Virus record (IMG/VR): IMGVR_UViG_3300043410_000388
Span: 1-47,589 of that record
Direction: 5' to 3' (one strand)
Length of the DNA: 47,589 bases
Source: a virus
Under the pieces are notes generated by a model, which saw only the letters and a list, made by a program, of their open reading frames with translations, was not told the DNA's origin and searched no databases. Positions 7,541 to 39,531 of the stretch are shown one piece after another. A program made the position numbers and the translations under genes. The stretch's first letter is position 1. Each line of letters opens with the position of its first letter.

Positions 7541-7784
7541 TTTTCTTGCCTTGTTCGTATTTTTTAAACATTCGAGTTACGTCTTCCATACGTTCTTGAA
7601 ATATTTCAGGAGCCTCTATTGCTGCACGATCCATATCCCAGACACTAGGGTAGTGGCGAAGAATGCCACGTGCCCGTTGTCGTATTTCTTTTGGAATACG
7701 TTTAGTAATATTCGGATCAGACAATGCCCGCAGAAATTCTTCTGCGTACAACACTGCTCGGTATCTTTCATCAGGCATTGTCAT
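7530..7784 (-). CDS. BPSL0761-like small protein
   Basis: 84 aa. The N-terminus MTMPDERYRAVLYAEEFLRAL and IPKEIRQRARGILRHYPS strongly resemble the BPSL0761 family of small cytoplasmic proteins found in many beta- and gammaproteobacteria; their role is unknown. The C-terminal 25 residues are charged and helical. It overlaps the dpdA-like gene by 14 bases and the unknown 180-aa gene by 11. Its presence hints that the host or a past host belongs to these classes. Confidence 0.6.
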   Translation of the reverse strand: MTMPDERYRAVLYAEEFLRALSDPNITKRIPKEIRQRARGILRHYPSVWDMDRAAIEAPEIFQERMEDVTRMFKKYEQGKKNEA

Positions 7785-9417
7785 GTTTTACTTCATCTTC
7801 GAGTTGGTCTAATTTGGATTCAACATTTTCGTCGAACTCGCCGTCTTCAGATTGTACAACATTATTCTCTTCTTCTGCAAACAAAACGGAAAACATCGGT
7901 CTAGCACTAACTGTTTTCTTGCCTTTGTAACCACGTGTACCTGGAATGTCCATCCAATACTTATGGTATTCTTTAACTAGTGCCTCTGCTTTACCTTTAT
8001 CACTAGTTGCAAAGATTTCATTAACAATGTCTTTAAAGAACATTTGATCATATTGCTTATGCTGTTTAGTGTTTGCATCGGCTACCGACATCATGTATGG
8101 GTAATTTCCATTGTCGTATTGTCTGTTTGCTTCTTGTACAGCATTAATGTGCGACCACACGTTATGACCCATTTGAATAGCATAACTAAATGAATCCCAA
8201 CTTGTTCTTTCGCTTACTTTACCTAGTTTATTAAAGTCTGGTTGTTTAATCCAATCTGCTGGATTATATGGATCTGGATTTTGAACTCCGGGCTTTGGTG
8301 TTCCTGAACCATATATACAAATGTCTTTAATACTTACTTGGTCAATAAGTGGACTTGGTTCAAAATTCTTAAAGATACCGTCTTGAATTACTGCGTCTTT
8401 GAAGAGTCTTGTGTCTGCTGCGTATTTTTTGTCATCAGCAGACGGCACCATTCTGTATGTCCATTTTCCTTTGTGGTCTGTTTCTGTTTGGATGTAGATT
8501 TGTCCGTTTGCTGTTGCGAGAAACGGTGAGGCGCAGTCAAAAGATATGGTAAAGTTTTCATTATGGTACTTCCTTACGGCACGTTGAATGTCAGTGAGCA
8601 ATACTGCCCACTCCAATTTTGATGTACCCAAGAAGTGCATCCAATCTTGATGCCCTTTCTCAAGTAAACCATCAAACCTTAATGCAACTAGTCTTTTAAG
8701 AACTAGTTCTACATCGCACATATTCTGTCCACCCATAGCCCAACCGTTAAATGCACGGTCTCCATAGACTTTAGGATCGCAATATTTCTTCATACGATCA
8801 TACCAATCGTCGGCGTCTGGGAAGTTTTCGCCTTGTAAAACGTTTAAGAATTTACAATTGCCATTGCGATTATTAACAAAGTAATCGTTATTGATATATG
8901 TTCCTTGTACTGCTTCTGCGTATGTGCTAATACCAGTTGCAGCACTGCCTGCAGGGCTACGAGCAACCCACGCAGGAATATCTAAACACATACCGTAGTC
9001 CATAAGCCCATCCATCCAGCTTAAAACCTGACTACGTTTCTTTTGAGCTTGTGGACAATTAGGGTCTTTCCAGTCAGCTGGCCAAACACCTTTACCGATC
9101 TGGAATCCACCTGAGTCGCCAAGTACCCAACTAGTGCTTCGATCTCTATTACGGAACATGTCTTCGTTCTGATCAGCCTTAGTTAAATCTAAATTAGCGT
9201 GACCTGCAGAATACAAACACCATTTGTAATAAAATTCACCAGCATCTGGTTCTAAATAGTTTAATCCTTCTACGCCACACGCCCATGATTGTGGAACTCT
9301 AGCAGGATCTACGTAATTACCGTAGCGTTGTTTGCCAATAAAAGTGGCATAGAAACCACTTGTTGCTGGCAAGAACACAGCGTAATCGTTCTGTGTAGAT
9401 GTTAAGTTACGATTCAA
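7771..9417 (-). CDS. dpdA: DpdA-like DNA 7-deazaguanine transglycosylase (TGT fold)
   Basis: 548 aa. TGT-family marks are visible in order: LGDSGGFQ (Asp101, the general-base/substrate loop), NVLQGE (Gln195-Gly196), GWAMGG (225-230), HFLGTSKLEW (261-270) and ISFDCASPF with Asp294, placed like the TGT nucleophile. The usual tRNA-TGT zinc-binding CxCxxC is not seen, which fits DpdA proteins acting on DNA. This family exchanges guanine in DNA for preQ0 or a derivative. The start is TTG with GGGGC upstream; no ATG or GTG exists between the preceding in-frame stop and this point. The last 60 residues are acidic and probably disordered. Neighbouring folE/queD/queE/queC supply the base. Confidence 0.8.
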   Translation of the reverse strand: MNRNLTSTQNDYAVFLPATSGFYATFIGKQRYGNYVDPARVPQSWACGVEGLNYLEPDAGEFYYKWCLYSAGHANLDLTKADQNEDMFRNRDRSTSWVLGDSGGFQIGKGVWPADWKDPNCPQAQKKRSQVLSWMDGLMDYGMCLDIPAWVARSPAGSAATGISTYAEAVQGTYINNDYFVNNRNGNCKFLNVLQGENFPDADDWYDRMKKYCDPKVYGDRAFNGWAMGGQNMCDVELVLKRLVALRFDGLLEKGHQDWMHFLGTSKLEWAVLLTDIQRAVRKYHNENFTISFDCASPFLATANGQIYIQTETDHKGKWTYRMVPSADDKKYAADTRLFKDAVIQDGIFKNFEPSPLIDQVSIKDICIYGSGTPKPGVQNPDPYNPADWIKQPDFNKLGKVSERTSWDSFSYAIQMGHNVWSHINAVQEANRQYDNGNYPYMMSVADANTKQHKQYDQMFFKDIVNEIFATSDKGKAEALVKEYHKYWMDIPGTRGYKGKKTVSARPMFSVLFAEEENNVVQSEDGEFDENVESKLDQLEDEVKHDNA

Positions 9418-16165: not shown

Positions 16166-17830
16166 TTAGTTTCCTGGTTGACGGCCGTATTTTTTCTGCC
16201 ATTGAATTTCGTCAATTTCAGATTCGAGATCGTCGATTTTATTTTGTGTGTTTCTAACAGCATCTTCAAAAATTACATCTAAGCCGTAAACTGCTGATTC
16301 TAAAGCTCTAATTGCATTGAACACATCGTCTTCGGCATACTTAAGGTCTGCCTCGTCTAACGCAATTCCAGATTGTGCTAATGCACGAATTCTTGTTATA
16401 ATGCTACTAGCAGTATCATCATATTTAATTTCTCTAGTAACTTGCTTGGCCTTAGATAAAGCATATTCAGCTTTTGTAAGTTCTTTTGTAAGTAGTTTAA
16501 TTTCTTGTTGAATTGTACGTTCGTCTCTAGCAGGTTGTTGTGCTTGATCATTTTCGTACATTGGGGTTTTCTTTTTAGCCCATGTAGCTTTTTTCATATG
16601 TATAAACTGTTCAAGTTTTGATAATTTGTTATGCCAGATATCTAATGCTTCGTCATATTCGGCAACTGTAGTCGGAGTTGGAACGTTAAGTTCTAAGTCA
16701 GCTTCTAATCCAGGAGTAATTCCACCTGGAAATCTTTCTGCACGTAATGTTAATTTTTCAACCTTTTCCATTACACGAATCAACTCGTCAGTTTTTGCCA
16801 TTAGTTGTTGTAACTCTGGTAACGACAACGATTCAATATCAATTGAACGTTCTACTTCTGGTTGTTTTTGTGGCTCATCTTGTTGAACTGGAGCAACTCG
16901 ATGTGTTCTAGGAGCAGTTGTTCTTGAACCTAATGATGCTGCAAGGTCTTTACCCCACTGATCAACTTCTGCTTGTTTTTCAGCAGATAATGGTTCTACT
17001 GATGCAGATTGAGGTTGCACAGGTTTTGCATTTTGTTTTTTAAATTGCATCAACTTATCAAGTTGATCTGGTGCAAGCCTAGCTTCACCTAACCCTCTAC
17101 GTCTAGCTTCTTTTTCTAGTTCGAGATGTCTTTTAAAAAGTTCTGCTTTTAAATCAGCATCTTTATGTGTGTTAGGATCTAACTGAATGTCTTGCAATGC
17201 TTTGCGCTTTGCTGCTAAATCAGCTTTATCTTTTAATGGAGTGTAGTTTGAAGATTCAAGAACTCGAGCTGCAATCTTTTGAGAATACATTCTAAGGCGT
17301 TCTTGTTTTTTTACTTTCTCTTGTTCATGTGCTTCTTCTGCTTCTGCAAAATATTGTTTTAGCAATGAAGGTTTTTTAGGAGCAGGTTTTGCAACAGGTG
17401 CTGCATAATGTTGCATTGCCATTTGAACAGGAAGGGTAACCTTGTGCGGGTTAGCACCTTCTGATAGCTGCGTTGCTAATTGCTGCTGTGTTTGTTGTGG
17501 AGCACTTCCTGCTTTTCTAGCTTGTTCCCATGCTTGAGCATTTGCACCGGCTAACTGATCAGCTTGTGCTTTCAAACCATTAACTTGTTGTACAAATTCT
17601 GGGCTTGAATTTTTTGCAACACCGCTAGCATCTGGAGTCATCTCTGCTGCTAACATATCGTACTTTGCCATTAATTCAGCATACTTGGCAAAGTTAGGAT
17701 CTTGTTGTGGAGTAGTGACAGGTGCTGCTCCTTCGGTAACAATACGAAGAAATTTAGACATGTCGCTACCGCCTTCTACAGGCTTAGTAGCAACGCCATC
17801 CATTGCCTGTAAAATTCGTTTCATGTCCAT
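16166..17830 (-). CDS. putative virion/core protein, coiled-coil rich
   Basis: 554 aa, almost wholly helical and rich in Gln, Ala, Lys and Glu. Starts MDMKRILQAMDG, with a second leader-like segment SKFLRIVTEG near residues 25-34. Long coiled-coil stretches lie near 160-250, 340-370 and 440-550 (RNTQNKIDDLESEIDEIQWQ); Pro/Gln linkers separate them. The composition resembles scaffold or prohead-core proteins of T4-like phages. Possible prohead-protease sites of the Leu/Ile-x-Glu type occur (IVTEG, YFAEA, LSEG). No enzyme motif. Either ATG of MDM could be the start. Five bases separate it from the upstream gene. Confidence 0.55.
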   Translation of the reverse strand: MDMKRILQAMDGVATKPVEGGSDMSKFLRIVTEGAAPVTTPQQDPNFAKYAELMAKYDMLAAEMTPDASGVAKNSSPEFVQQVNGLKAQADQLAGANAQAWEQARKAGSAPQQTQQQLATQLSEGANPHKVTLPVQMAMQHYAAPVAKPAPKKPSLLKQYFAEAEEAHEQEKVKKQERLRMYSQKIAARVLESSNYTPLKDKADLAAKRKALQDIQLDPNTHKDADLKAELFKRHLELEKEARRRGLGEARLAPDQLDKLMQFKKQNAKPVQPQSASVEPLSAEKQAEVDQWGKDLAASLGSRTTAPRTHRVAPVQQDEPQKQPEVERSIDIESLSLPELQQLMAKTDELIRVMEKVEKLTLRAERFPGGITPGLEADLELNVPTPTTVAEYDEALDIWHNKLSKLEQFIHMKKATWAKKKTPMYENDQAQQPARDERTIQQEIKLLTKELTKAEYALSKAKQVTREIKYDDTASSIITRIRALAQSGIALDEADLKYAEDDVFNAIRALESAVYGLDVIFEDAVRNTQNKIDDLESEIDEIQWQKKYGRQPGN

Positions 17831-17834
17831 ACTA

Positions 17835-19379
17835 TTATCCGTTTAAACGTGTTAAGAATTCTTTCATACGAGCAAGTTCTGCTGACTCATTTAAAGATTC
17901 ATCAACTTTAAAGTTAGGATTTTGTTTGCTAAATGTTGCTGGATCAACTACAGGCTTTGGCATACCACCTTGGCCCATTACTTCGGAACCGTCAATTGAA
18001 AGACGATCTTTTAATAGTTTGATACGTGCATCTAATTGCCTTGCTTCTGGAGTACCATCTGGATACTTTTTACGCATTGCTAATAATTGTTGTAATTGTG
18101 GACTACGGCGTTCTAAAGATGCATCTGTGTTAAACATGTCGCCAGCAAAATTGCTAACAGCATCTAACACGCCCTCTTCTAGTTTGCCTTGCTTGGCTAA
18201 CTTAGCACGTACAGCACCTGCTACACGCTCACCAGCTTCTTTAGAACCATATTTCTTGCCTGCTTTCTTAGCAATCTTAGCAAAGTTCTTACCTGGTTTG
18301 CCTTCGTCGCGACCTTCTTCGATGTCGTCATCATGACTATCGATGTCAGTGTCTTGTTCTTTGTTATGGTCTTTTGCTTTTTTAGCACCTTCTACTTCTT
18401 CATTTTCGTAGATACCTTGACCAAATGAGTGTTTTGAAGACCCCTGGCTTTCTTCTGCAGGGGTTTCTTCTTTCTTACTTACGGATTTTTTTTTTGGTGC
18501 TTCTTCTACAGCAGCTTCTTCGTCATCTGGGATGCCATTCTTGTTAGCATCGATACGTTTAGCAGCAGCAGCATATGCTTTAGCTTTCTTGTTGTACTTA
18601 GCAGCCTTGGCCTTAGCTTCTGGGCTCCATGACTTAGCTGGACTCATTACTTGACCAGTACCGCCACATGCTTCACATGGGCATGGTTCGCCGCCCATTG
18701 TTTCGTTAACAGTGCCAGCAACAGGAGCAGGTTGTGCAGTATCACCTTCTAATTTCTTTCTAAGAGCACTAATAGTTCTTGCTAGGTTTACTTTATCGTA
18801 ACCTGTAGCTGTTTTATATTCTGCTTCGTATTTTGCAAGAGCGGCACGAGTTGCTTCGTCTCCTGCGCCTTCTTCTATCTTGCCAGCTTTCTTAGCAGCA
18901 CGGATTTTACTACCTAAGTATTCATCTTTGCCAGATTCAACTTTGCCGTCACCGTCATAATCTTTGTCAGCTTTCTTTGACTTCTTACCTTCGTCAAGTC
19001 TGTCAACTTGTTGAAGCTTCAACGCTCTAAGCATTTGTTTAGCTTCTTGAAGTTTATTTAAAAGCTCTTTCTTTTCGCTTTCGCTGTAAACATCACTGTT
19101 TTCTAATTTAGAACCGTATTCGCTAAACTTCATTTCGTATTCTAAATAGTGATAAACGCTAGCAATGTAATCAGCAGCTTTAGTGATCTTAGCTTGTACC
19201 CAAGCTTCTAATTGTTGATCATCATTAATTTGCTTGAATAGCTTTAAAGAATAGTTTGATAGTTTGTATAAATCAGCCTTAGCCATTGCACCTTCATGAT
19301 CGTGACCACCGTCTTGAACAGGAGCTGCTTGTCCTAATTCTGGTTGATCTGGCGCAAATTCGTTAAGTTGTTTTGGCAT
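17835..19379 (-). CDS. putative core/internal virion protein with Ca-binding-like motifs
   Basis: 514 aa. After an acidic start, residues 31-130 form a helical domain (ADLYKLSNYSLKLFKQINDD) that I recall from other aquatic T4-like phages. Then come an EF-hand-like loop DKDYDGDGKVESGKDE (138-153), a cysteine cluster CPCEACGG (233-240) like a DnaJ zinc repeat, a second calcium-type loop DANKNGIPDDEE (277-288), a highly charged Lys/Glu/Asp region and a basic stretch KIAKKAGKKYGSK. The motif [LI][DE]EG recurs at 128, 168, 353 and 400, like prohead-protease sites. A late-promoter-like box lies 24 bases before the ATG. I infer a prohead-core protein; enzyme activity not seen. Confidence 0.55.
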   Translation of the reverse strand: MPKQLNEFAPDQPELGQAAPVQDGGHDHEGAMAKADLYKLSNYSLKLFKQINDDQQLEAWVQAKITKAADYIASVYHYLEYEMKFSEYGSKLENSDVYSESEKKELLNKLQEAKQMLRALKLQQVDRLDEGKKSKKADKDYDGDGKVESGKDEYLGSKIRAAKKAGKIEEGAGDEATRAALAKYEAEYKTATGYDKVNLARTISALRKKLEGDTAQPAPVAGTVNETMGGEPCPCEACGGTGQVMSPAKSWSPEAKAKAAKYNKKAKAYAAAAKRIDANKNGIPDDEEAAVEEAPKKKSVSKKEETPAEESQGSSKHSFGQGIYENEEVEGAKKAKDHNKEQDTDIDSHDDDIEEGRDEGKPGKNFAKIAKKAGKKYGSKEAGERVAGAVRAKLAKQGKLEEGVLDAVSNFAGDMFNTDASLERRSPQLQQLLAMRKKYPDGTPEARQLDARIKLLKDRLSIDGSEVMGQGGMPKPVVDPATFSKQNPNFKVDESLNESAELARMKEFLTRLNG

Positions 19380-19403: not shown

Positions 19404-19411
19404 TATTTATC
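19404..19411 (-). promoter_or_regulatory. T4-late-like promoter box
   Basis: GATAAATA on the minus strand, one base from the T4 late consensus TATAAATA, 24 bases before the 514-aa gene. It overlaps the stop codon of the upstream gene. Same octamer as the boxes before 22428 and 35378. Confidence 0.55.
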
Positions 19412-19667
19412 GTTTTACAGCACCGCCGCCGAATAAGTTTGCACCCTTCATATCTAGTGCATTTACGGCAGTTCCTGCTGATGTTTTAGGCTGTACAACT
19501 TTAGGTACATTAGGCGCCTTTGTTCCTGATTTACCAGGACTTCCTGTGTAGCTTTTTTTTCCGATGTTCTTTTTACCAATTGCTAGCTGCGGGCTAACAA
19601 CTGTTCCTACGTTTGCTGCGCTAGTTGCTCCAGCAGTTGCAGATTCGATAATATCTCTAATTTTCAT
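19407..19667 (-). CDS. small putative internal head protein with capsid-targeting-like leader
   Basis: 86 aa. N-terminus MKIRDIIESATAGATSAANV shares its first seven residues with the next gene upstream. The rest is Gly/Lys/Ser/Pro-rich and basic, likely disordered and DNA-compatible, as in T4 internal proteins. T4 IpI-III and Alt begin with a short MKTYQEFI-type targeting leader that the gp21 protease removes after Glu; this leader looks analogous. Two bases separate it from its upstream neighbour. Proteins beginning in this way recur in marine phage genomes, as I recall. Confidence 0.55.
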   Translation of the reverse strand: MKIRDIIESATAGATSAANVGTVVSPQLAIGKKNIGKKSYTGSPGKSGTKAPNVPKVVQPKTSAGTAVNALDMKGANLFGGGAVKR

Positions 19668-19668
19668 A

Positions 19669-20055
19669 TTAAACCCCGTACTTGTTCTTTTTAGGTTTAG
19701 CTACTGGGCTAGTAGTATTTGTACCGGTAGGTTCTTTACTTTTACCATAAGAACTAACAACTTTTTCATTTGACGGTACAGTTTTGTGTGCTTGCTTAAT
19801 CATGTTGTCCTCTTCTTTAGTTAGAGGATGATATGTATTGTATTTTTCAAACCAAGTTTCTGCAGGACTGTCAACAGCTTTAGTGTTCTCGCCATCAGCC
19901 ATCGCCATAGCCATTCCGATACGATTTAAATGGTATACACGATCGTACCCACCTACGTCTCTGCTTCTAGTAACACCTTTACCTACACGATCTTGATGTT
20001 TCTTAAGAGGCGTAACTTTATCAGAAGCTTCAGAAATAATATCTCTAATTTTCAT
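19669..20055 (-). CDS. small putative internal head protein with capsid-targeting-like leader
   Basis: 128 aa. Leader MKIRDIISEASDKV fits a gp21-like cut after ISE, before Ala. The body is basic and polar (RVGKGVTRSRDVGGYDRVYH, then a helical LNRIGMAMAMADG and a KPKKNKYGV tail). No enzyme motif. It is one base from the next gene upstream and two from the one downstream, so this is a tightly packed late unit. I infer packaging in the head beside the DNA. Confidence 0.55.
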   Translation of the reverse strand: MKIRDIISEASDKVTPLKKHQDRVGKGVTRSRDVGGYDRVYHLNRIGMAMAMADGENTKAVDSPAETWFEKYNTYHPLTKEEDNMIKQAHKTVPSNEKVVSSYGKSKEPTGTNTTSPVAKPKKNKYGV

Positions 20056-20374: not shown

Positions 20375-22054
20375 TTATGCTTTTAGATATTTGGCTACGA
20401 GATCGAAGAATTTAACGTTTTTTTCGTTAATGTTGATGCTTGTATCAGCTGAAATGCCAGCAGCTTCTGTAAACTGCTTTCTATCCCCTGATTTAACTGC
20501 TTCTCTTAAGCTAGTTGCAGAGCTAAGTCGCTGTGTAGGAACTTGTGTGATGCTATTAAACAAATAATACCCGTGCTCGGATTCTACACCGTTATATTCA
20601 GATAGGAATTTTAAAATCCACGCTTCGTCTGTATAAATTTTTAAATTAACGTTCTTACCGTGCTTGTTGTAAACTTCTGTAGCCATTTCAAAAACACGTT
20701 TAGCCGGAATAATATGCCCGTTAATTTTTGGATAAACCATTTCCATGCATTTTACTTTTACATCGTAAGGTAGGGGATTCTTTTTGTCTTGAGTATTTTC
20801 GTTAGTGCCAACATACCAGTGTGTACATTTACTTGCATCTTCCCAAGCAGCTTTATGACCTTTATGTGGAGGATTCCAACGACCGTAACAAATGCCTACA
20901 GATTCTGTTAGATCTTTTGGTGTCCAGCGTTTGCGTGGAACCAATTTAATGTGTCCAAACTGTTTAGACTCGTCAGCGTAACGTACACGCCCTTCACCGT
21001 GAGTATCCCAAATATCTGCTGTGTGCGCAGATTCAATTTGTTCAATTAAGTTATCTTTAGTAGTTTGAATGCGTTTAACAAGTGTAAAGATTGGATCTAA
21101 TGCACTGTATTGTTCGTCTAGTTTAGAAATTTTTTCTTGTTTAGGTTTGCTTACTTTACTAGATTTAAGCCATTCGAAAAACATTTTACGACTAATGTTT
21201 TCTAGTTGATTTGCCTTAGCAGTTTGATTTACAAACTTGTAAATGATATCTTTAATGTCACTTAGTCCAGTTGTACCTTCTAAGAATGTGTCAATGTTAC
21301 CTGCATTAGCATCGATGTATTCTAACAAACCATCTGTCTTAGCAGATAGTTTGCTTTGATTGTAAATCGGTTCTTGAACAATAAGTTGTTTATTATTGTT
21401 AAACTTACTAAAATCTTTTATTGGTTCTTGCGCCTCGTCGAGCATACCGAATCTTGGAAAGAACGCATGACCTACAACCATAGCAGTTGCAGATTGTATA
21501 CGCTTGCCTAATGTGCTAGAAGGCTTGACATGATATGTAGTTTGTGTATGCGGATTTGGACTAAAAGAATAGTTACCGGACTCATCTAATTGTTGTGGTG
21601 ATGAAAATAAGATGTCACCGTAAACAAAACCTACAAAGTCTTTTGGTGTTGCTGCATCAAATGTAGAGTATAGGCTGGAAAAACTCTCAGCAAACGCTTT
21701 GCGTGACTCTAATTCTTCTGCTGTCTTTGGATTACCACTTTTGTTTACAATAAAATCGTATAACTGTTTTGAGCTAGATGTTTTAATACCTTGTGCCCAG
21801 TTATTGTGTCCGGCAAAAATTAACGGGCCGTTAACACGTTCACGACCCCAATACACTTGAGGACTTCCGTCCCACTTCATTCTAATGCTAGTTGCACCGA
21901 CGTCGGTATTAAATTCTTTTAAATGTTGCAGTGCTTCTTTAGCACCATGACTTCCGTGAAAGAAAACTAAATCTTCTAAGTGGTTAAAAGTTCTACCTAA
22001 TTTCTTAGGTACCTTGACTGCACTCTCTGTAAGAAACAGTTCTCTTAATAGCAC
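20375..22054 (-). CDS. ligase-like nucleotidyltransferase fused to HxGH nucleotidylyltransferase
   Basis: 559 aa from a GTG that lies 2 bases after the upstream stop with AAGGG in front. The N-terminus LLRELFLTESAVKV resembles the leader of neighbouring core proteins. Residues 58-65 MKWDGSPQ look like the K-x-D-G lysine motif of DNA/RNA ligases; FVGFVYGDILF (140-150), HGEGRVRY (352-359) and GHIKLV (367-372) resemble motifs III, IV and V. Residues 386-400 ICYGRWNPPHKGH and SSATSLREAV (511-520) are the HxGH and SSTxLR motifs of NMN/pantetheine-type adenylyltransferases. I recall the N-terminal part as DUF6267-like. I infer a nucleic-acid or NAD-linked enzyme, perhaps packaged in the virion. Substrate unknown. 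Confidence 0.7.
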   Translation of the reverse strand: MLLRELFLTESAVKVPKKLGRTFNHLEDLVFFHGSHGAKEALQHLKEFNTDVGATSIRMKWDGSPQVYWGRERVNGPLIFAGHNNWAQGIKTSSSKQLYDFIVNKSGNPKTAEELESRKAFAESFSSLYSTFDAATPKDFVGFVYGDILFSSPQQLDESGNYSFSPNPHTQTTYHVKPSSTLGKRIQSATAMVVGHAFFPRFGMLDEAQEPIKDFSKFNNNKQLIVQEPIYNQSKLSAKTDGLLEYIDANAGNIDTFLEGTTGLSDIKDIIYKFVNQTAKANQLENISRKMFFEWLKSSKVSKPKQEKISKLDEQYSALDPIFTLVKRIQTTKDNLIEQIESAHTADIWDTHGEGRVRYADESKQFGHIKLVPRKRWTPKDLTESVGICYGRWNPPHKGHKAAWEDASKCTHWYVGTNENTQDKKNPLPYDVKVKCMEMVYPKINGHIIPAKRVFEMATEVYNKHGKNVNLKIYTDEAWILKFLSEYNGVESEHGYYLFNSITQVPTQRLSSATSLREAVKSGDRKQFTEAAGISADTSININEKNVKFFDLVAKYLKA

Positions 22055-22056
22055 TT

Positions 22057-22428
22057 TTAGCCCTTGTATTTGCCATCGGTTATGTGTTGAGTAACTTCTT
22101 CGTGTAACTTGTCGCAAGTTTCCTTGCAAAGTTTTTCATCAATGCTAGACGGTAATTCACGAAGCGGGAATTTTTTAAGATAGTTTTTGTAACTTTCTTC
22201 TACAGCCGCTTTAAAAATATCTGGGCTGGTTTTCTTTTTTGATTCTCTAAAATTAATACATTTTACAATGCTAGGATATGTATGTCTACGATAAGTGTCG
22301 TCATCGTTGTTCATAAAGAACATCAAATCATCGGCCACGTCAAAGTTTGGCTCACGTTTGTCGCCTTTAATTTCAACCCATTTTAGGTCATCAAAGTTTT
22401 GGCCTTCTAAAAGATCTTGAATACGCAT
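22057..22428 (-). CDS. conserved hypothetical protein with leader-like N-terminus
   Basis: 123 aa. Starts MRIQDLLEGQNFDDLKWVEI, echoing the MKIRDII leaders nearby. The body is alpha/beta with RREs such as DDDTYRRHTYPSIVKCINF and a helical Cys/Glu/Lys C-terminus (LCKETCDKLHEEV). A GATAAATA late box lies 27 bases upstream. It is followed at once by the ligase/nucleotidylyltransferase gene, which relies on its end for ribosome supply. Function unknown. Confidence 0.55.
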   Translation of the reverse strand: MRIQDLLEGQNFDDLKWVEIKGDKREPNFDVADDLMFFMNNDDDTYRRHTYPSIVKCINFRESKKKTSPDIFKAAVEESYKNYLKKFPLRELPSSIDEKLCKETCDKLHEEVTQHITDGKYKG

Positions 22429-38488: not shown

Positions 38489-38956
38489 ATGCTTGACAAC
38501 AAAATACACGCAGATAATACATTTTGGACTACATTAAAATGGCCAGCAGCGCCTAACGAGGACGATTATTGTGTATTTGAACAGTATTGTAAAGGAAGAG
38601 TTTTACTATTAGGAAGCACAAAACTGTTACTTCCCTTAGCAACAGAAGCATGGGATTTAGAACCTAAGTACGCAGATCCTAAAATTAAACATAAGGATTG
38701 GTTTAGTTTAAATGAGCATTTTGATACAGTTATTGTAGACGGTGCGTTAGCATTCGGTGAAGATTACTGTAAACAGTTATTGGAAGTTGTGCTACCTAAT
38801 TGTAATACATTTATAGCTCGTACTTTTTTAAATCCTAACTGGCCTACAAAATATGCTGTCTATTTTCCTAAAGCACACGAATTAACTCCGCACCCTGTGG
38901 AACATCCAATTAACGAGGTTTATACATTTTACATATGGAACAACAAACAATCTTAG
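38489..38956 (+). CDS. methyltransferase-like protein coupled to queC
   Basis: 155 aa from MLDNKIHADNTFW; an ATG-less extension upstream is not supported. GRVLLLGSTKLLLPLATEAWDLE (about 36-58) looks like the glycine-loop strand-helix of a Rossmann SAM-binding fold, and HFDTVIVDGALAFGEDYCKQLLE (about 76-98) like its motif IV/post-IV region. The catalytic residues and the substrate are unclear and it is short for a methyltransferase. It overlaps queC by 22 bases, so a shared pathway is likely. No ribosome site is visible. Confidence 0.5.
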   Translation: MLDNKIHADNTFWTTLKWPAAPNEDDYCVFEQYCKGRVLLLGSTKLLLPLATEAWDLEPKYADPKIKHKDWFSLNEHFDTVIVDGALAFGEDYCKQLLEVVLPNCNTFIARTFLNPNWPTKYAVYFPKAHELTPHPVEHPINEVYTFYIWNNKQS

Positions 38957-39531
38957 CAATGTATTCAGGCGGTTTAGATAGCCTGGGTATGATTTATAAA
39001 CTATTAACAGAACCCGAATACAAGGATTACAAACTACATATTCATCATATACATAACCGTAATGTAGAACAACGTGATAAGGCAGAAGCAGTGGCCGTTA
39101 AGTATGCGCTCGATGAACTTAAAAACTTAGGATTTAAGTTTGAGTTTAGCCAAAGCGAAATTCGCACAATGATGTATAATGGGTATTATATGTATGATTC
39201 CGATACTGTAAACTACTTTGCTGGTTTTGTTTGTAGTGTAAACCCCGATATTGTAAAAGTAGCAGTGGGAATGCAAGCTACTGACGGAAATCATACATTA
39301 GAAGAAAGACGAAAACGTGCTGACGCTATACTAGCTGCATTTACACCTGTAAAGAAAATATACCCGGTACTAAACATGACTAAGCGCGAAATTTATGACA
39401 GCTTACCAATTTCACTGAAAGATAAGTTTTGGAGTTGTCGTGTTCCTAAGTATACTGAAACAAGTATCGAACGTTGTAAAAAGTGCGATACTTGTCAAAA
39501 GTTAACAGCGCAAGGAATCTTTAAGGATTAG
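38935..39531 (+). CDS. queC: 7-cyano-7-deazaguanine synthase QueC
   Basis: 198 aa. The PP-loop SGGLDS (11-16) begins the ATP pyrophosphatase fold. The C-terminal zinc knuckle is made of Cys168, Cys181, Cys184 and Cys187 (CRVP, then CKKCDTCQKL), with 12 rather than the usual 8 residues between the first two. QueC uses ATP and ammonia to turn 7-carboxy-7-deazaguanine into preQ0. It is shorter than E. coli QueC (231 aa) and its middle is diverged, so a change in substrate is possible. It is tail-to-tail with the protease gene, sharing 11 bases. Confidence 0.85.
   Translation: MEQQTILAMYSGGLDSLGMIYKLLTEPEYKDYKLHIHHIHNRNVEQRDKAEAVAVKYALDELKNLGFKFEFSQSEIRTMMYNGYYMYDSDTVNYFAGFVCSVNPDIVKVAVGMQATDGNHTLEERRKRADAILAAFTPVKKIYPVLNMTKREIYDSLPISLKDKFWSCRVPKYTETSIERCKKCDTCQKLTAQGIFKD

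What the first reader, a model, noticed from the sequence alone, without database searches (positions are those of the whole stretch)
20375..22054. Ligase-like domain fused to an NMNAT-like domain, possibly carried in the virion
KWDG, GEGRVRY and GHIKLV suggest a nucleic-acid ligase or capping fold; HKGH and SSATSLR suggest an adenylyltransferase of the NMN type. Both in one protein, with a leader-like N-terminus in a core-protein operon. It could make or use NAD, or attach NAD-like groups to RNA or proteins at the start of infection.
Basis: partly seen in the sequence, partly recalled or inferred. Interest (0 to 1): 0.75.

Follow-up and report, generated by a model that had tools for sequence, protein, structure and literature searches.

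The report
Capsid-tagged ligase-like plus NMNAT-like phage enzyme
A marine-type T4-like phage carries one gene joining a hidden ligase-like enzyme (a family so far labelled only 'unknown function') to an NAD-synthase-like enzyme, with a short tag that probably sends the product into the virus head for delivery into the host; the family is also the only ligase candidate found in nine related phages that lack every recognisable ligase.

Summary
The gene lies on the minus strand (22054-20375, GTG start, 559 aa). Its N-half is DUF6267 (Pfam: unknown function); its C-half is an (H/T)xGH adenylyltransferase. Models are confident (pLDDT 92-93). The C-half matches NMNAT/PPAT (Z about 12.5). For the N-half, all 50 best entries among 928 mixed candidate chains are covalent ligases or capping enzymes, though weakly (Z 4.5-6.2); KxDG, D, EG and K are invariant in relatives only 17-23% identical. 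So DUF6267 is very probably an unrecognised branch of that superfamily. Relatives encode the halves as adjacent genes (cyanophage T4-GC71 and T4-GC190) or, as in S-PM2, fused. The first ten residues resemble T4 capsid-targeting sequences. In four cyanophages the leader-bearing NMNAT-like homologue was found in virions by published mass spectrometry; in three of them the leaderless DUF6267 protein was not reported. The linker repeats the leader's LTE|S, so the head protease may free both enzymes. Nine complete relatives lack recognisable DNA or RNA ligases (T4 control positive) and NadV. Best reading: a head-packaged precursor of a ligase-like and an NMNAT-like enzyme. Substrates are unproven; transfer of NAD-like groups has no support.

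The parts
20375..22054 (-). Fused gene, 559 aa: leader + DUF6267 ligase-like domain + NMNAT-like domain; GTG start
22025..22054 (-). Capsid-targeting-like leader MLLRELFLTE|S (residues 1-10), L-x-E site for a T4-type prohead protease
   Evidence: model residues 7-19 under pLDDT 50
20924..22000 (-). DUF6267 domain (residues 19-377), covalent-nucleotidyltransferase (ligase/capping) fold
21860..21877 (-). Motif I K60-W-D-G-S-P; K60 is the predicted nucleotidyl lysine
   Evidence: 50/50 conserved; KxDG invariant
21614..21622 (-). Motif III-like Y-G-D147
   Evidence: 49/50, invariant
20984..20995 (-). Motif IV E354-G-R-V357
   Evidence: E, G, V 50/50
20933..20947 (-). Motif V K370-L-V-P-R374
   Evidence: K and R 50/50
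20900..20911 (-). Inter-domain LTE|S (382-385), same four letters as the leader site; apparent remnant of the NMNAT-like protein's own leader
20378..20908 (-). NMNAT/PPAT-type adenylyltransferase domain (residues 383-559)
20855..20866 (-). HxGH signature H397-K-G-H400
   Evidence: G and H 23/23
20504..20524 (-). SSATSLR (511-517), ISSTxxR-type motif
   Evidence: S512 and R517 23/23
22057..22428 (-). Upstream gene with the same kind of leader (MRIQDLLEG...), function unknown
19669..20055 (-). Downstream gene with leader MKIRDIISEA..., function unknown
19407..19667 (-). Downstream gene with leader MKIRDIIESA..., function unknown

Best explanation
It is a precursor of a head-packaged, host-delivered enzyme pair in a T4-like phage. 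The first ten residues act like a T4 capsid-targeting sequence: they bring the protein into the prohead core and are cut off by the prohead protease after L-T-E. A second LTE|S in the linker may let the same protease separate the two domains inside the head. The N-domain is a divergent covalent nucleotidyltransferase: K60 should take AMP from ATP and pass it to a nucleic-acid 5' end, that is, nick sealing (RNA or DNA repair). The C-domain is an NMNAT-type adenylyltransferase that should join a mononucleotide such as NMN to ATP's AMP early in infection. Shown here: the fusion, both predicted folds, catalytic residues, leader, linkage of the two genes in relatives. Shown in the literature for leader-bearing homologues: presence in virions. 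Inferred: packaging of this protein, cleavage, delivery, both substrates.
For: Models: full length pLDDT 92.1, N-domain 93.3, pTM 0.87. C-domain: PPAT Z 12.6, archaeal NMNAT Z 12.4, NadM Z 12.3. N-domain: all 50 best entries are RNA/DNA ligases or capping enzymes out of 928 mixed candidates; 6vt4 Z 6.2, 4.6 A over 183; T4 Rnl2 Z 5.7. Invariant KxDG, D, EG, KxVxR at 17-23% identity. Gene pair fused or next to each other in 22 loci, within 3 kb in 17 more. Leader patterns: 42% of DUF6267 and 39% of NMNAT-like genes vs 12% of other genes. Virion detection of leader-bearing NMNAT-like proteins: S-SM1, S-SCSM1, S-CREM2, S-SZBM1; the leaderless DUF6267 proteins of the last three are not reported.
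Against: The N-domain match is weak by score (Z below 8; no Foldseek PDB hit at E 0.001), and profile comparison with Rnl2 finds nothing. The rows come from Foldseek's own preselection. Motif III has D where many ligases have E, and no nucleic-acid-binding partner domain was identified. Several DUF6267 relatives have no leader, so packaging is not general. L/I-x-E is short: 12 such sites occur in this protein. CsCl-purified virions may carry contaminants, as the proteome authors say. Start codons in the leader statistics were called by a simple rule.
Confidence: 0.55

Rival explanations
1. NAD-side reading: the protein works mainly as a virion-borne NMNAT that refills NAD at the start of infection, against NAD-depleting defences; the ligase-like half is secondary or inactive.
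For: NMNAT-like fold and motifs; best sequence matches are archaeal NMNAT MJ0541 and NadR; homologues in virions.
Against: No NadV (NAPRTase) in nine complete relatives although phage NadM is reported always to come with NadV; ligase residues are invariant, so that half is under selection; NMNAT and PPAT tie by fold.
Confidence: 0.2
2. The DUF6267 half is mainly a replication/repair ligase of marine T4-like phages, the unrecognised replacement of T4 gp30 or of the T4 RNA ligases; packaging in this lineage is a side branch.
For: Nine complete relatives have no PF01068, PF01653, PF09414 or PF09511 match while T4 has PF01068 and PF09511; in cyanophages the gene lies beside gp43, uvsX, gp41; its product usually lacks the leader there. 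Lack of g30 in cyanomyoviruses is a stated open point (PMC2984593).
Against: Host ligase can replace gp30, as the same review says; no nick-sealing evidence; no OB-fold recognised; the fused and split window lineage carries leaders.
Confidence: 0.3
3. RNA-modifying pair: the C-domain acts like TmcAL (HIGH nucleotidyltransferase that activates acetate for tRNA), the N-domain repairs tRNA.
For: Second-best PDB sequence match of the C-profile is UPF0348 MJ0951 (E 4.2e-5), with a similar motif region; HIGH_NTase1 hits 2 of 23 members at 0.06. That UPF0348 is the TmcAL family is from my own knowledge.
Against: NMNAT families match far more members; no tRNA-binding part seen.
Confidence: 0.08
4. Structural or core protein that has kept two enzyme folds without activity.
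For: Leader and neighbours suggest a head-core cluster.
Against: Nearly every predicted catalytic residue of both domains is invariant in distant relatives.
Confidence: 0.07

Closest known systems
Cyanophage T4-GC71 (DUF6267, PF19782, phrog_455) next to T4-GC190 ('cytidyltransferase', NMNAT-like)
   Same: Same two families; adjacent or near in many marine T4-like phages; fused in S-PM2 (LN828717, 591 aa)
   Different: Most are two genes; many DUF6267 proteins there lack the leader; the family is annotated as unknown and no held paper names it
T4 RNA ligase 2 / Naegleria RNA ligase and other covalent nucleotidyltransferases
   Same: Motif order KxDG, D/E, EG, K; best fold matches
   Different: No sequence-profile match; long helical insertion before motif IV; no known C-terminal ligase domain
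Archaeal NMNAT / NadM / NadR and PPAT
   Same: Fold Z about 12.5, HxGH, SxTxxR-type motif
   Different: Substrate unknown; no Nudix or kinase partner fused, no NadV in relatives; NUDIX found in only one of ten records
T4 internal proteins IPII/IPIII and Alt
   Same: Short N-terminal leader ending in x-E, MKTYQEFIAE|A and MELITELFDED; Alt is an enzyme injected with the DNA (record note)
   Different: Cargo is unrelated; packaging of this protein untested

Membership tests
Covalent nucleotidyltransferase superfamily (polynucleotide ligases, capping enzymes) | Motif I KxDG with nucleotidyl lysine | tested here: met
   K60, D62, G63 50/50; KxDG invariant at 17-23% identity with the W variable
Covalent nucleotidyltransferase superfamily (polynucleotide ligases, capping enzymes) | Acidic motif III, EG of motif IV, lysine of motif V, in order | tested here: met
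   D147 49/50, E354-G355 50/50, K370 50/50
Covalent nucleotidyltransferase superfamily (polynucleotide ligases, capping enzymes) | Ligase/capping fold | tested here: met
   All 50 best entries of 928 chains belong to it, Z 4.5-6.2; low scores, no residue-level map
Rnl2-type RNA ligase | Sequence-profile relation to T4 Rnl2 | tested here: not met
   hhalign probability 0.1-0.2%; not filed here
Covalent nucleotidyltransferase superfamily (polynucleotide ligases, capping enzymes) | Lysine-AMP (or GMP) intermediate | not testable with these tools
   needs an assay
(H/T)xGH adenylyltransferases (NMNAT/PPAT/CCT fold) | HxGH and fold | tested here: met
   H397-H400; PPAT Z 12.6, NMNAT Z 12.4
NMNAT proper | NMN specificity | tested here: inconclusive
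   NMNAT and PPAT tied by fold; sequence leans to NMNAT
Phage NadV-NadM salvage | NadV partner gene | tested here: not met
   PF04095 absent in nine complete relatives; this window is a fragment, so its own genome is not excluded
T4-type capsid-targeted internal proteins | Leader of about 10 residues ending L/I-x-E | tested here: met
   MLLRELFLTE|S
T4-type capsid-targeted internal proteins | Present and processed in virion | not testable with these tools
   only homologues:

The most novel reading that the evidence does not exclude
DUF6267 is the unrecognised ligase of marine T4-like phages, which lack T4's DNA and RNA ligases; in this lineage it is packaged in the head as a polyprotein with an NMNAT-like enzyme, cut apart by the prohead protease, so that the infecting particle brings its own repair and cofactor enzymes.
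Probability: 0.3. Interest if true: 0.82.

Novelty: new variant of a known kind. Interest (0 to 1): 0.62.

Why it matters
DUF6267 occurs in hundreds of marine phage genomes with no function attached. Placing it in the ligase superfamily gives a test for a stated gap (no g30 ligase in cyanomyoviruses), and the leader gives a simple sequence rule for which phage enzymes enter the head and may reach the host with the DNA.

Tried and rejected
phmmer of the protein against PDB: nothing. Profile of the N-domain against PDB sequences: only coiled or low-complexity matches such as eS8 and hemolysin D, set aside as composition. hhalign of DUF6267 against Rnl2, narrow and broad alignments: nothing. Pfam on minimal DUF6267 forms: no ligase family; RNA_lig_T4_1 touched 2 of 51 members at E 0.015, not used. 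DUF6267 in cellular genomes: hits sit almost all in marine MAG contigs, likely phage. blastn of the locus against phage records: nothing. The whole-model fold search told only of the C-domain, so the N-domain was folded alone. S-CBWM1 'NMNAT' is only a weak match and has no such leader, so it was left out of the leader argument although that paper reports it in virions. NAD-group transfer to RNA or protein: no domain supports it.

Full report
WHAT IS THERE. The coordinates are right but the gene is on the minus strand: GTG at 22054 to the stop at 20375, 559 aa. It follows the stop of gene 22057-22428 by two bases. Pfam gives DUF6267 (family of unknown function) for the N-half and CTP_transf_like for the C-half; PHROGs gives cytidyltransferase families 3041 and 395, and phrog_455, unknown function, for the N-half.

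RELATIVES. In viral contigs the closest relative L004 (88%) is also fused; L005, L006 (75%) and L007 (57%) carry two genes, the first ending where the second begins. At the junction, split relatives have an overlapping stop/start (AAATGA in L005); the fused genes have lost it by deletion, and the linker PKDLTESVGIC still resembles the start of the split NMNAT-like protein MKISDLLKETTVGIC. Among loci with DUF6267, 2 are fused and 20 have the NMNAT-like gene immediately next, 17 more have it within 3 kb, 29 have none within reach, and 22 are cut off too early to tell. In cyanophages the pair is T4-GC71 and T4-GC190. S-PM2 carries another fusion of 591 aa in the later record LN828717, read as two pieces in the older record. 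Structure search in BFVD lists further fused-size relatives. So the fusion is a variant, not unique.

N-DOMAIN. AlphaFold2 with 51 rows gives pLDDT 93.3 and pTM 0.87. Foldseek alone gives no significant PDB hit, but its first row is human DNA ligase IV and several ligases and capping enzymes follow. Realignment of 928 candidate chains by VIA-align 2 puts ligases or capping enzymes in all 50 best entries, Naegleria RNA ligase first (Z 6.2, 4.6 A over 183 residues), T4 Rnl2 at Z 5.7. Z below 8 alone would not convince; the agreement of all rows with the motif pattern does. Over relatives as far as 17-23% identity the invariant columns include KxDG, D, EG and KxVxR, with the W of KWDG variable, which is the superfamily's signature (motif knowledge: my own). 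Sequence profiles do not link it to Rnl2, so it is not filed under any named ligase family.

C-DOMAIN. The fold is NMNAT/PPAT with Z about 12.5. HxGH and the S...R motif are conserved (the first H is T in many cyanophage members). Sequence profiles lean to NMNAT: MJ0541, NadR. Specificity is open. None of nine complete relatives has NadV, which phage NadM is reported always to have (PMC9503650).

LEADER AND PACKAGING. T4 IPII and IPIII start MKTYQEFIAEA and Alt starts MELITELFDED. T4's protease cuts after L/I-x-E, and ten N-terminal residues of IPIII suffice for packaging (PMC9026906). The window protein starts MLLRELFLTES. Four neighbouring genes, and only they among 53, match both leader patterns. 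In loci from relatives such starts occur in 42% of DUF6267 and 39% of NMNAT-like genes against 12% of other genes, which themselves include such neighbours (Fisher p 3e-9 and 4e-5, not corrected for relatedness). Published proteomes give a natural test. Leader-bearing NMNAT-like proteins were found in virions of S-SM1 (MKKFSAFLNEA; PMC3037559), S-SCSM1 (MKSFLQFLKEA; PMC9602691), S-CREM2 (MKNFSSFLTEA; PMC10665884) and S-SZBM1 (MRFRQFIIEA; PMC9146016). The DUF6267 proteins of the last three have no leader and are not reported in the virion (for S-SCSM1 this rests on the labels of the GenBank record). The leaderless S-PM2 protein was not detected there (PMC3037559). In the window lineage the leader sits on the DUF6267 half, so the fusion should be packaged whole. 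LTE|S occurs twice, at 8-11 and at 382-385 in the linker; a second cut there would free both enzymes. This is a prediction: L/I-x-E occurs 12 times in the protein, and the four-letter check was made after seeing the linker.

THE LIGASE GAP. Nine complete DUF6267-bearing marine T4-like genomes have no match to ATP- or NAD-dependent DNA ligase or to two RNA ligase families, while T4 scores for PF01068 and PF09511. A review states that cyanomyoviruses lack g30 and that either a distant homologue is unrecognised or host ligase serves (PMC2984593). In cyanophages the gene lies beside gp43, uvsX and gp41. DUF6267 is therefore the only ligase-superfamily candidate found in those genomes.

VERDICT. 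Observation confirmed; interpretation partly supported. Most likely a head-packaged precursor of a ligase-like and an NMNAT-like enzyme. The superfamily assignment is about 0.9 likely, packaging about 0.7, nick sealing about 0.4, NAD synthesis about 0.4; these four are judgements, not computed.

Noticed in passing
L091 6992-8771 against L213 1898-3673: S-PM2's DUF6267-NMNAT gene is split into p138 and p139 in record AJ630128 but a single 591-aa frame in LN828717; the older split hides the fusion.
   Followed up: yes
window 38935-39531 and 2228-2923: A QueC-like gene (PF06508, E 8e-5) and, by reading, a GTP cyclohydrolase I-like gene; with 7771-9417 (looks by eye like a tRNA-guanine transglycosylase, no Pfam match) they hint at 7-deazaguanine DNA modification.
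   Followed up: partly
L095 1069-1848, L003 5242-6327, L090 5950-7008: The gene just before DUF6267 in several marine phages looks by eye like a PD-(D/E)XK nuclease, some with a capsid-targeting-like leader (MQGFKTFLSEA in L003).
   Followed up: no
L002 7977-10671; BFVD H8ZNG8: NMNAT-like and DUF6267-containing proteins in some cyanophage records are labelled NrdB or ribonucleotide reductase, apparently a carried-over naming error.
   Followed up: no
L194: A DUF6267 homologue lies on a 188-kb contig of Nonlabens xiamenensis, possibly a phage genome sequenced with its host.
   Followed up: no
window 16166-19379: Two long proteins rich in A, K, E and Q, without a clear family match, between the leader genes and a peptidoglycan-binding protein: candidates for head core or scaffold proteins.
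   Followed up: partly
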